Assembly (NCBI RefSeq): GCF_003113895.1
Contig: NZ_BDUD01000001.1
Location: forward strand, 186,001-250,000
From: Nostoc commune NIES-4072
GTDB taxonomy: Bacteria; Cyanobacteriota; Cyanobacteriia; Cyanobacteriales; Nostocaceae
Length of the DNA stretch: 64,000 bases
Direction: 5' to 3'
Below the pieces are notes generated by a model, which was not told the DNA's origin, did no database searches, and saw nothing but the letters and a program-made list of their open reading frames with translations. Below are positions 21,723 to 24,535 of this stretch, one piece after another (position 1 is the stretch's first letter; each line of letters opens with the position of its first letter). Position numbers and translations under genes: made by a program.

Positions 21723-22541
21723 TTATTCTATGCTTTGAAAATCCAAACTCAGCTTTAAATTATTTATCCAAGACCGATCAATTAGATGATCGTGTTGCAG
21801 CCGACCTACAACTATACCAGGATGAATACCGATACGTTCCGCAAAATCAATTACATCAGTTTCAGATTTAAGCTTCACTAATTCTCCCTCATACTCAGGT
21901 GGAATCAAAAATTCCCGCGACCATTGATCTGCTTGGCGTTCCTGCTCCGATTTCAAACTGTCCCCACTATTCCATTCATCAAGGAAAATATTTTCTTTAT
22001 CATGTAGGAAAATATGTGCTGCTTCATGGAAAAAATCAAACCAAAAGCGGTCATTAGTTTTACCATAAAGCGAAAGTTGAATCAGTGCCTTATGCGGATT
22101 TAACCACCGTGCAACACCACTAACGTGCGCTTTCTTTATTGATGGTATTAAAACAAGGACAACCCCTGCTTCCCAGCACAACTTTTGCATCTGTGGTTTA
22201 AACTCCTCTGGTAGTAACACCGTCAAAGTCCGAATTTGCCGCACCGCCTTTTCAAATTTTGGCTTACTGTACTTGGGACAATCTAGTTGTTCTGCTCTTA
22301 TTTCCCCCAACCGTAACCAAGTGGAAATAGCACCAACATCACTTTGCTCTTCGCGTGTACGGCGAAAAGCAACTTCCATACCTGCATAATAATTCTGCCA
22401 ATCTTCCGGCGAGGCAACACCGAAAAATTGTAGTAACTTTTTTACCAAATCAGGCTTATTCTTGGCAATTAAACGGCACTTAGGAATTACACCTTGGTTC
22501 ATCAAGTCTTTGACTGGTAACTCATCTAACCAAGGGAGCAA
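21723..22541 (-). pseudogene. ImmA/IrrE metallopeptidase half of a split higA-immA gene
   Basis: The frame reads WLDELPVKDLMNQGV, then FFGVASPEDWQNYYAG and VAFRRTREEQSDVGAI, and carries the zinc motif FHEAAHIFLH (HExxH) followed by an Asn/Asp/Glu-rich segment and EQERQADQWSREFLIP with the third ligand. This is the C-terminal part of the HTH-ImmA fusion family. It has no ATG of its own near the left edge (the frame opens with a TTG inside the MITE). Deleting the MITE and one 9-bp duplication joins it in frame with 22649-22987 (305+802 = 1107 bases, 368 residues). Probably not made as a full protein now. Confidence 0.85.
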
Positions 22542-22682
22542 CGCGATTTTGTGAGGTGCTAAAATCTGGGACGTATATAGCTTGTTTCAGGATGCGATCG
22601 CAACTAAAAAACCAGATTTTGTTGAGAATATAGGGGTGTAATTGAGAACTAAACCCCGATCTCACTTTTTCGCGTTGCTCCC
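22534..22682. mobile_element. 149-bp MITE with perfect 9-bp target duplication
   Basis: Ends are GGGAGCAACGCGATTTTGTGAG (22534-22555) and the inverted form at 22661-22682; the two 22-bp ends differ only in a central AAAA/TTTT block. The flanking direct repeats TCTAACCAA at 22525-22533 and 22683-22691 are identical. Inside, AAAATCTGG and CCAGATTTT form a second inverted pair, so the whole unit can fold. It has no reading frame and contains a GCGATCGC site. It splits the higA-immA gene. Confidence 0.9.
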
Positions 22683-22987
22683 TCTAACCAACATGTCCAT
22701 CCCTTTAAGCGGTTTTCTTCTTCTATTCGTGCTAAAGCGGCGCGATATTGGGCTTCACGATTGAGCCAAAATGCTGTTGTACTCCCTAAAACTCGTTCTA
22801 GTTTCAGGGCTGTTTCTTCATTGATGGGTGCTTTGCCGTTGATCAACTGGCTAATATGTTTTGTGGTGTAGCCTAATCGCTCTGCTAACTGTACTTGTGT
22901 CCAATCACGCTCTTCTAATATATCAGCAATGGTATCACCGGGAGGAGATACCCAATCTGGAGTAAAGGTACGGGTTGTCTCAATCAT
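22649..22987 (-). pseudogene. higA: HigA-type HTH antitoxin half of a split gene
   Basis: 112 residues from the ATG at 22987. An XRE/HigA helix-turn-helix fills residues 15-75: IADILEERDWTQVQLAERL, TTKHISQLINGKAPI and ERVLGSTTAFWLNREAQYRA. The last ~15 residues (after GWTCWL) are encoded by the inserted MITE and end at a chance stop. The DNA-binding part is whole, so the shortened protein could still act as antitoxin and autorepressor. The ATG overlaps the stop of the toxin gene by 8 bases. Earlier ATG codons in this frame lie inside the toxin gene and are unlikely starts. Confidence 0.85.
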
Positions 22988-23309
22988 GGTAATCTCCAAT
23001 AAAAACAATACAAATAGCAGTAACTTTTGACCAATCAATGCTCCCATCCTCGGTAAGGGTTATGGGGTCGTTGTCTGGCTTAAATACAAGTCGTTTACCA
23101 CCTTCTAGGTCTACTGCAAATTCACCCGCTCGATCTCCTTTTAAGGGATGGGGACGACCTGCAAATAATTCCTTGACACAGCTAACAGCTGCAAGGTCAG
23201 CCAATCGGGCTGTCAATTTCTTAGCACAGTTTGCACCCAATTTTCTTTGCGCTAAGTTTTGTTGTTCGCATAGCTTTTGCAGTTGGCGGTCAGCGAAGGT
23301 GATTTCCAT
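22980..23309 (-). CDS. higB: HigB/RelE-family toxin
   Basis: 109 residues, normal for the family. ITFADRQLQKLCEQQNLAQRKL gives the two N-terminal helices, GRPHPLKGDRAGEFAVDLEGG the central strands and GKRLVFKP the RelE-like strand; ICIVFIGDYHD is the typical C-terminal end. The family cleaves mRNA on the ribosome. The gene order toxin-then-antitoxin is that of HigBA. It overlaps the antitoxin start, so the pair is coupled. With the antitoxin gene damaged by a MITE, the toxin is either still held by the surviving HTH part or is inactive. Confidence 0.85.
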   Translation of the reverse strand: MEITFADRQLQKLCEQQNLAQRKLGANCAKKLTARLADLAAVSCVKELFAGRPHPLKGDRAGEFAVDLEGGKRLVFKPDNDPITLTEDGSIDWSKVTAICIVFIGDYHD

Positions 23310-23398
23310 GCGTTACTAGACTAATATAAGTTTACCATTTTGGTAAATAAATTTGTTATGTTTCTAGATAATTTAGCAGATCAACTAATCAGCAACGC

Positions 23399-24535
23399 TT
23401 AAAAATCTACCCCTCGTTTAAGCTCTACACCTTGATTGGCATAGTGTTTGTGGCAATAAACCTCTGAGTGGACGCTAGCCAAGTCGAAGTACGCAGGTGG
23501 ATTTTGGCAGCGACCAGTGATTATAATTTCGGTATCGCGGGGTTTGCGGAGTAAAGCTTGCACAATCGGTTCAACGGGGAGTAATTCTAAATCAACAGTG
23601 GGATTTAGTTCATCGAGAATAATAGTTTTATACAATCCAGAGGCGATCGCAACTTTAGCGATTTCCCAACCCCTTTCGGCTTCTACATAATCTAATTCTT
23701 GCCTAGAATTTCGCCAGACGATCGCATCTCCACCGCAGCGCTGATGATCCACCACTTCTGGATATGACTGTTGTAAGGCAGCGATCGCAGCGTCTTCTGT
23801 GTAGCCACTACCACCTTTAAGCCATTGCATAATCAGCACACGGGTAGACCCTGGATGATTGATTCCCCTACCAATAGCCTGTAAAGCTTTGCCCAAAGCA
23901 CTAGTAGACTTGCCTTTACCAGCACCAGTATAAATTTCAATGCCTTCAAGAAAGAGAGCTTTAGCTGTTGGGTGGTGATGAGGTTTCATTTCTGAGTGCA
24001 AATCTGCAATATCAAGCAACTTTTGCGGTGCGGCGCGTCCGGTGGCGATGATTTCCAACTCTTGGGGTTTAGATTTTAATGTCCGTACCACTTCATCTAC
24101 TGGTAGCAAACCCAAATCCAGAACCGGGTTAATCTCATCCAAGACAACAACTGAATATAAACCACTAGCGATCGCGCCTTTAGCTACATCCCAACCCCGC
24201 ATCGCTTCATCTCGGTCAAAAGTGGTAATTTCCTCATGACCAAAAAATTCGGCTCTCCCGGTGCGAACTTGGTCAATTAAATGAGGAAACCCACGTTGCA
24301 AAGCTGCGATCGCCCCATCTTCGTCATAATCACGTTCAGGCCCTTTTAAAAACCGCAGTAATAAAACGCGGTTAGAATTGCTAGGCGTATTGATCCCTAA
24401 GCCAATAGAGCGCAAAACCACCCCTAAAGCTGCTTGAGACTTACCTTTACCCAGACCATCGTAGACGTGAATTTGACCGACGAGCCGTTCTTGACGCACT
24501 TGCGCCGTGCGAATACCAATACCGTTCCTTGTCAT
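23399..24535 (-). CDS. cobO: tandem-duplicated CobO-type corrinoid adenosyltransferase
   Basis: 378 residues, about twice the ~200 of CobO/BtuR. Two P-loop domains: GQIHVYDGLGKGKSQAALG (about 20-38) and IEIYTGAGKGKSTSALGKAL (about 199-218). Each is followed by the same family pattern: VLLLRFLKG / VLIMQWLKG, YDEDGAIAALQ / YTEDAAIAALQ, SGLYSVVVLDEINP / SGLYKTIILDELNP and IATGRAAP / IITGRCQNP. CobO uses ATP to adenosylate cob(I)alamin. Both P-loops are present, so both halves could bind ATP. It stands alone before fraCDE, divergently. Confidence 0.85.
   Translation of the reverse strand: MTRNGIGIRTAQVRQERLVGQIHVYDGLGKGKSQAALGVVLRSIGLGINTPSNSNRVLLLRFLKGPERDYDEDGAIAALQRGFPHLIDQVRTGRAEFFGHEEITTFDRDEAMRGWDVAKGAIASGLYSVVVLDEINPVLDLGLLPVDEVVRTLKSKPQELEIIATGRAAPQKLLDIADLHSEMKPHHHPTAKALFLEGIEIYTGAGKGKSTSALGKALQAIGRGINHPGSTRVLIMQWLKGGSGYTEDAAIAALQQSYPEVVDHQRCGGDAIVWRNSRQELDYVEAERGWEIAKVAIASGLYKTIILDELNPTVDLELLPVEPIVQALLRKPRDTEIIITGRCQNPPAYFDLASVHSEVYCHKHYANQGVELKRGVDF

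What the first reader, a model, noticed from the sequence alone, without database searches (positions are those of the whole stretch)
21723..22987. A 149-bp MITE splits a higA-ImmA fusion gene, with a perfect 9-bp target duplication
The HTH half (22649-22987) and the ImmA peptidase half (21723-22541) are separated by a unit with 22-bp inverted ends and TCTAACCAA on both sides. Excision of the unit plus one duplication copy leaves 1107 bases, exactly 369 codons, and rebuilds GWTCWLDELPVKDL across the joint. This is a precise, checkable insertion event in a toxin-antitoxin locus, leaving a toxin gene beside a damaged antitoxin.
Basis: partly seen in the sequence, partly recalled or inferred. Interest (0 to 1): 0.75.

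Follow-up and report, generated by a model that had tools for sequence, protein, structure and literature searches.

The report
MITE splits a HigA-peptidase gene
A tiny jumping DNA element has recently landed in, and cut in two, a toxin-antitoxin-type gene of a soil cyanobacterium; the event is real but ordinary in kind, and the more telling part is that the same element sits in dozens of identical copies across the genome and marks deletions on its plasmids.

Summary
A 149-bp MITE (22534-22682), flanked by the exact 9-bp repeat TCTAACCAA, interrupts one reading frame. Five Nostoc relatives have the uninterrupted site; 32 of 42 named homologues run through the joint in frame. The genome is Nostoc commune HK-02. 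It holds 56 copies, all 149/149 identical: a very recent burst. Full-length IS with matching ends and an ISKra4-like transposase exist in relatives.

'Toxin beside a damaged antitoxin' is doubtful: the HTH part left is as long as a whole HigA, and the nearest studied fusion, PD-lambda-2B, was itself toxic and neutralised by its HigB-like partner (PMC9519451 passages). The MITE may have disarmed the toxic side. Some relatives lost the peptidase half by other routes.

Unexpected: 27 of 46 plasmid copies, but 0 of 10 chromosomal ones, lack an exact TSD. Where both flanks could be compared, three TSD-less copies replace 292, 441 and 2580 bp; 8 of 9 TSD copies are clean insertions. The mechanism is open. 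New member of a known kind, with an interesting family-level pattern.

The parts
22534..22682 (.). 149-bp MITE, TIRs 22534-22555 / 22661-22682 (13 bp perfect, 18 of 22 overall); 1 of 56 identical copies in the genome
   Evidence: folded as RNA -53.5 kcal/mol, z -7.9
22525..22533 (.). target-site duplication copy TCTAACCAA
   Evidence: single copy in relatives
22683..22691 (.). target-site duplication copy TCTAACCAA
22649..22987 (-). HTH (HigA-type) half; native down to 22683, last codons and stop lie in the MITE
   Evidence: HTH_3 E 6e-13; TIGR02607 above cut-off
21723..22541 (-). ImmA / Peptidase_M78 half with an HEAAH motif (by eye); ORF start (TTG) lies in the MITE end
   Evidence: PF06114 35.7 bits, cut-off 22; PADLOC PD-Lambda-2_B E 3.2e-27
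22980..23309 (-). upstream HigB/RelE-like partner gene, 109 aa, no stop or gap against relatives
   Evidence: 91-92% identical over 109 aa to the partners in G017 and G032; YoeB 17.7 bits, below its cut-off 27

Best explanation
SHOWN: a non-autonomous 149-bp element, of a family whose full-length members encode an ISKra4-like transposase, inserted with 9-bp target duplication between the HTH and peptidase regions of a HigA-ImmA (PD-lambda-2B-like) gene on the chromosome of Nostoc commune HK-02, during a burst so recent that 56 copies carry no substitution. INFERRED: the product is now a HigA-sized HTH protein with a short MITE-coded tail, cut off from its zinc-peptidase domain, which is probably poorly made or not made. 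The main effect is loss of the peptidase arm. The HTH part may still repress the operon and bind the HigB-like partner, so the cell tolerates the insertion. If the fusion is the toxic side, as in PD-lambda-2, the insertion disarmed it.
For: TSD and TIR; uninterrupted site in L090, L092, L093, L094, L095, where the upstream flank aligns to base 305 and the downstream flank from 297 (298 in L090), four with the exact 9-mer once and L090 with one base different; joint contiguous at the same spacing with no stop in 32 of 42 named loci; 56 identical copies (no change in 8344 bp); full-length IS whose ends match the MITE's left 24 bases at 24 and 23 (L206, 9-bp TSD) or 24 and 24 (L205); model of an intact homologue with HTH helices and a long helix at 16-96, before the insertion at about residue 100-102; ImmA half lost with HTH and partner kept in G011/NMS9; an HTH-only protein of about 106 aa beside a 40%-identical partner in G055.
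Against: The transposase is below NCBIfam's ISKra4 cut-off (114.7 against 205). In HK-02 itself no intact transposase with matching ends was found: the C1 copy lacks its C-terminus and the intact C2 IS matches 20 of 24 end bases. The MITE's right end matches these IS ends less well (18-19 of 24). No expression data; no promoter-like site in 22400-23500. The tail could destabilise the HTH protein. dN/dS of 0.07-0.30 for the three parts reflects time before the insertion and says nothing of function now.
Confidence: 0.9

Rival explanations
1. One reading: the HigB-like protein is the toxin, the fusion the antitoxin, and the insertion leaves a toxin next to a crippled antitoxin.
For: HigB/RelE-like partner upstream (weak hits); HigA domain in the fusion; Makarova 2009 reports Zn-peptidase-Xre fusions in operons with RelE or PIN toxins (PMC2701414 passages).
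Against: In HigBA the antitoxin is the HTH protein alone (PDB HigA-type chains of 94-138 residues), and that part is kept; the partner gene is uninterrupted in HK-02 and in G011/NMS9 although the peptidase half is cut off or gone; PD-lambda-2B was toxic and its HigB-like partner protective.
Confidence: 0.3
2. The split is an old arrangement of two separate genes, not a recent insertion.
For: An HTH-only relative exists (G055 L197) and unfused Xre-COG2856 pairs are common (PMC2701414 passages).
Against: Contiguous in 32 of 42 named loci; exact TSD; element identical to 55 others.
Confidence: 0.01
3. Assembly error placed a repeat in the gene.
For: 56 identical repeats could mislead an assembler.
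Against: A misplacement would not create a 9-bp direct repeat at the joint; 29 of 56 copies have exact TSDs, nearly all of different sequence (C1:2717511 and C2:16511 share one).
Confidence: 0.02
4. For the TSD-less copies elsewhere: DNA was lost between two directly repeated MITE copies (recombination, single-strand annealing or slippage), each event leaving one MITE without a TSD.
For: In HK-02 all lie on plasmids, and C2 is 36 times denser in MITEs than the chromosome; both borders carry the target preference; recombination between two direct MITEPsy2 copies deleted 8.3 kb at 3.8e-3 in a Pseudomonas plasmid (PMC6354349 passages); annealing or slippage gives deletions only, fitting 0 of 27 reciprocal partners.
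Against: It needs many close direct pairs; a direct pair 184 bp apart (C2:15364/15697) persists; TSD-less copies also occur where density may be low: one MITE on the 8.2-Mb contig of G012 and the 1493-bp IS derivative on the HK-02 chromosome.
Confidence: 0.5
5. For the TSD-less copies: the transposase makes adjacent deletions, or joins the two element ends to two separate target sites, so the element itself removes the DNA between.
For: Target preference at both borders (mean score 1.88 left, 2.19 right; 2.57 for 9-bp TSD copies, from which the score was defined; 1.20-1.22 at random C2 positions); homology ends at the MITE edge; half of the full-length IS loci looked at (4 of 8) also lack a TSD.
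Against: 0 of 10 chromosomal HK-02 MITE copies and 0 of 5 chromosomal IS copies in G025 are of this type, which then needs strong selection; replicative models predict inversions too, and no reciprocal partner was found.
Confidence: 0.35

Closest known systems
PD-lambda-2 anti-phage system (Vassallo et al. 2022, PMC9519451, passages only)
   Same: HigB-like gene followed by a HigA-like HTH fused to an ImmA/IrrE peptidase; intact homologue hits PD-Lambda-2_B at E 7.2e-30 over residues 16-348
   Different: HigB-like partner gives no PADLOC hit; no third gene beside the pair in the window's ORF list; defence untested; here interrupted
RosmerTA (RmrA, HTH plus ImmA protease domain; PMC10440598 passages)
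   Same: domain order HTH then ImmA peptidase
   Different: weaker profile match (best E 8.8e-10, peptidase part); partner is HigB/RelE-like
HigBA (stand-alone HigA)
   Same: HTH domain and toxin-first order; HigA structures match the HTH part
   Different: HigA here was fused to a peptidase until the insertion
Prokaryotic MITEs; in cyanobacteria Nezha (title seen in the reference list of PMC10969869; that paper not read)
   Same: short, TIRs, TSD, many near-identical copies
MITEPsy2 deletions in Pseudomonas plasmids (PMC6354349 passages)
   Same: MITEs bound plasmid deletions
   Different: there shown by experiment between two known direct copies; here inferred from one genome, three deletions measured, mechanism open

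Membership tests
MITE | short unit with terminal inverted repeats and no transposase gene | tested here: met
   149 bp, 13-bp perfect TIR; six-frame translation shows no transposase (one frame is free of stops)
MITE | target-site duplication | tested here: met
   9 bp here; 8-9 bp exact in 29 of 56 copies, one more with 1 mismatch, none in 26
MITE | repeated copies and an autonomous element with the same ends | tested here: met
   56 copies; L205 and L206 ends match the MITE's left end at 23-24 of 24, its right end at 18-19; these lie in other species, not in HK-02
ISKra4 family | transposase above the NCBIfam NF033572 cut-off (205 bits) | tested here: not met
   114.7 bits over profile 67-422 for the intact C2 copy, 61.5 for the C1 copy: nearest family, not a member by this test
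ISKra4 family | 8-9 bp TSD (that this is typical of the family is recalled) | tested here: inconclusive
   9 bp in L204 (outer end), L206, L210, L212; none in L203, L205, L207, L209; HK-02 C2 IS flanked by AGGTTAAT
PD-lambda-2 | component B: HigA-like HTH fused to ImmA peptidase | tested here: met
   intact homologue L090 E 7.2e-30; in the window the gene is interrupted
PD-lambda-2 | component A matching the PADLOC model | tested here: not met
   no hit for the window protein at E 0.1, nor a PD-Lambda-2_A hit for four homologues at E 5; HigB/RelE-like only by weak Pfam hits
PD-lambda-2 | component C and anti-phage activity | not testable with these tools
   no third gene beside the pair by ORF list; activity needs an experiment
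HigA antitoxin (TIGR02607) | score above 47.7 bits | tested here: met
   51.6 bits for the window half, 48.3 for L090
HigB toxin (PF05015) | score above 27 bits | tested here: not met
   no hit for the window protein at E 0.01; 14.5 and 19.6 bits for homologues L090 and L099

The most novel reading that the evidence does not exclude
This ISKra4-like transposase regularly joins its two element ends to two separate target sites, so that miniature elements replace a few hundred to a few thousand bases instead of duplicating 9, and a swarm of 149-bp MITEs is actively trimming an 807-kb plasmid, while on the chromosome of the same cell only clean insertions such as the one in this window have survived.
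Probability: 0.2. Interest if true: 0.65.

Novelty: new member of a known kind. Interest (0 to 1): 0.4.

Why it matters
The locus is a clean natural experiment: a chromosomal HigA-peptidase gene cut between its domains, with intact copies in close relatives, in a family (PD-lambda-2B) where the division of labour between 'toxin' and 'antitoxin' turned out opposite to the naming. Other Nostoc have lost the peptidase half by other routes, which gives a way to ask what that domain is for. The wider pattern, 56 identical copies of which only plasmid ones lack a TSD in this strain, would make MITE-driven plasmid erosion testable in one strain.

Tried and rejected
Reciprocal partner flanks for TSD-less copies (exchange between copies): 0 of 27 found; the control gave 1 hit in 1080 comparisons. 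A parallel MITE insertion in a homologous HigA gene of G033 (C158) looked possible from a 3-mismatch pattern match; the flanks read as another protein by eye, so it was dropped; the other four 3-mismatch places were not examined. A promoter in the region: none of the sigma-70 type found. Structure search of the whole fusion: the 11 matches at E 0.001 or better are HigA-type antitoxins; among the 50 listed none covers the whole protein (CapP, rank 28, aligns 176 columns with poor scores). One search split the copies wrongly (8-bp test only) and is replaced. Literature searches by listing only: MITE-adjacent deletion; insertions in antitoxin genes; this strain; MITEs in Nostoc; no listed title or abstract start was about this element. 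That is not a claim that none exists.

Full report
WHAT IS THERE. The window is part of the chromosome (contig C1, bases 186001-250000) of Nostoc commune HK-02: a 20,000-base stretch of contig C8 is 100% identical to plasmid AP018331.1 of that strain, and both are 34,879 bases long. At 22534-22682 lies a 149-bp unit with imperfect 22-bp inverted ends (18 of 22; first 13 perfect), bounded on both sides by TCTAACCAA. On the minus strand the order is: a 109-aa HigB/RelE-like gene (22980-23309), a HigA-type HTH half (native to 22683, with a short tail and stop inside the unit), the unit, and the ImmA / Peptidase_M78 half (ORF from 22541 down to 21723).

IT IS AN INSERTION. Without joining the flanks, I aligned each to the uninterrupted gene of relatives. 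In L092, L093, L094 and L095 the upstream flank matches bases 1-305 and the downstream flank starts at 297, so they hold the target TTGGTTAGA (the minus-strand reading of TCTAACCAA) once; L090 has it with one base different, and its downstream match starts at 298. More distant relatives (L097, L098, L115) align only in part. HTH and ImmA are in one frame at identical spacing, without a stop, in 32 of the 42 named loci found in genome contigs (36 of 42 if other spacings are allowed; the other six have stops, a contig edge, or one half without a match). Among 53 genomes of the genus, own included, the junction of this target with the MITE end occurs without mismatch only here; five other places match with 3 mismatches, and the one I read is another gene.

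WHEN AND BY WHAT. The genome holds 56 copies by a 36-base pattern with up to 3 mismatches, all with none, and all 56 are 149/149 identical: 10 on C1 (7.15 Mb), 41 on C2 (807 kb), 4 on C3, 1 on C4. No change in 8344 bp gives an upper 95% bound of 3.6e-4 per site, unless gene conversion homogenises them. More diverged relatives of the unit also occur on C2 (e.g. 564046). In 59 genomes (own included) 38 have some match, many of them only the 24-26 bp end, with at most 14 candidates scored per genome; full-length copies at 93-97% are listed for seven others (G003, G004, G007, G012, G017, G023, G033). Full-length IS with nearly the same ends exist in relatives: L206 (G032, 1945 bp, 9-bp TSD, ends 24/24 and 23/24 to the MITE's left end) and L205 (G028, 1923 bp, 24/24 at both ends, transposase with a stop). 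The MITE's right end matches these ends at only 18-19 of 24. The transposase is nearest ISKra4 but below NCBIfam's cut-off. At E 0.001 HK-02 has three relatives of this transposase, the query included: C1:2829024-2830516, which lacks the C-terminal part and has no TSD; one on C4 that runs into the contig end without a second inverted end; and C2:316997-318924, with a full-length frame and an 8-bp TSD but only 20 of 24 matching end bases. Whether the C2 copy moves the MITE is unknown.

WHAT THE GENE IS. The intact homologue matches PADLOC's PD-Lambda-2_B over residues 16-348 (E 7.2e-30), RmrA of RosmerTA more weakly, and TIGR02607 HigA just above its cut-off. In the passages I read of PMC9519451, PD-lambda-2 has a HigB-like A, this HigA-peptidase B, and a third gene C; B alone was toxic when overexpressed, A rescued it, and C was needed for defence. 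Makarova et al. 2009 (PMC2701414 passages) describe Zn-peptidase domains fused to Xre in operons with RelE or PIN toxins. The HigB-like protein here has only weak matches (YoeB 17.7 bits, cut-off 27; RelK 3oei E 0.083) and no PADLOC hit, so membership in PD-lambda-2 is incomplete. HK-02 has a second, uninterrupted pair of this kind on C2:11263-12682 (HigB-like Pfam 36.9 bits, cut-off 27; PD-Lambda-2_B 167 bits).

WHAT THE INSERTION DOES. A model of the intact homologue from Nostoc sp. CCCryo 231-06 (27 sequences, mean pLDDT 85.7) has HTH helices within 16-67 and a long helix 71-96; the insertion falls at about residue 100-102, in a short helix before the peptidase part. The surviving HTH protein has 102 native residues, like stand-alone HigA (HigA-type chains of 94-138 residues in PDB). 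Close loci in the relatives set show other breaks: G011, and Nostoc NMS9 with the same sequence, lost the whole ImmA half from residue 98-99 and kept HTH and partner; G004 has an internal ImmA deletion and a match to only part of the partner; in G008 the gene is interrupted near residue 119 close to contig ends; in G024 (the same locus as CHAB 5784 by sequence) there is no match to HTH residues 1-66 or to the last 11 residues of the partner, and the spacing is about 90 bases short by my arithmetic. By my count seven of twelve close loci are intact (G017, G032, G015, G005, G025, G042, G053) and five broken, HK-02 included, four of these on the ImmA side. An ImmA C-terminal remnant in G002 is not counted. 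So losing the peptidase half is tolerated. That fits two readings which I cannot separate: an HTH-only HigA still controls a HigB toxin, or the fusion was the toxic side and has been disarmed. Codon comparison with four relatives gives dN/dS 0.07-0.30 over the three parts, i.e. constraint before the insertion.

A PATTERN BEYOND THE WINDOW. Of the 56 copies 29 have an exact 8-9 bp TSD, one (C2:475805) has one with a mismatch, and 26 have none (27 by the exact test). In HK-02 all TSD-less copies lie on C2, C3 and C4; all 10 chromosomal copies have a TSD (10/10 against 19/46 exact, Fisher p 8e-4). I compared the flanks of all 56 with seven fetched pieces of Nostoc plasmids, chosen from hits to six C2 stretches and so biased to those. 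For 33 copies no flank mapped next to the MITE. Both flanks mapped for 12. Nine of these had TSDs: eight are clean (overlap of exactly 8 or 9), one has a 33-base difference. Three were TSD-less: gaps of 292 bp (inside a type I restriction gene hsdR), 441 bp (in an IS630 gene that has more than one copy) and 2580 bp (conjugation region, about 97% identity). For the remaining 11, all TSD-less, homology is found on one side only, ending 0 bases from the MITE in eight; the other side may be deleted, or merely not in the pieces I fetched. So the TSD-less copies that could be tested mark deletions, and the rest probably do. No copy has a partner that would show inversion (0 of 27). Sites with 9-bp TSDs show a palindromic preference just outside the repeat (A 16 of 23 left, T 17 of 23 right), and TSD-less borders show it on both sides at intermediate strength.

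OTHER GENOMES, FOR AND AGAINST. Full-length IS on the G025 chromosome: 5 of 5 with TSD; on its smaller contigs 2 of 5; on G026 contigs of 122-469 kb, which I take for plasmids by size, 3 of 7. Against a simple plasmid rule: G033 MITE copies 14 of 14 with TSD; one MITE on the 8.2-Mb contig of G012 has none; the HK-02 chromosomal IS derivative has none; on contigs of unknown kind G004 has 2 of 4 with TSD, G017 0 of 1, G003 1 of 1 and G023 1 of 1 with a mismatch; G007's chromosomal copy has one. These are copies I picked from the listings, not all. Loss between direct copies or transposase-made deletion both remain possible; MITE-bounded plasmid deletions by recombination are known (PMC6354349 passages).

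VERDICT. The finding is real and correctly read as a MITE insertion; its consequence is less clear than stated and may be the reverse. The event is ordinary in kind; the family-level pattern and the repeated loss of the peptidase arm are what a specialist would follow.

Noticed in passing
HK-02 contig C2:11263-12682 (L049): A second, uninterrupted HigB-like / HigA-ImmA pair of PD-lambda-2B type, near type I restriction genes.
   Followed up: partly
HK-02 contig C2:15364-15845 (L049): hsdR of a type I restriction system broken by two MITE copies in direct orientation, 184 bp apart, the first replacing 292 bp.
   Followed up: yes
HK-02 contig C2, e.g. 221699, 274465, 312833, 361575, 704524: Further MITE-like units with related ends and G-rich repeats inside; a second family on the same plasmid.
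   Followed up: no
HK-02 contigs C1:2717511 and C2:16511: Two MITE copies with identical 20-base flanks, so the surrounding stretch is itself repeated on chromosome and plasmid.
   Followed up: no
L170 near 3270, and L191: In NMS9/G011 the ImmA half is deleted from within a few bases of the point where the MITE sits in HK-02, with no MITE copy found there.
   Followed up: partly
window 23399-24535: 378-aa ORF that reads like two copies of one cobalamin adenosyltransferase-type domain in a row (by eye, not searched).
   Followed up: no
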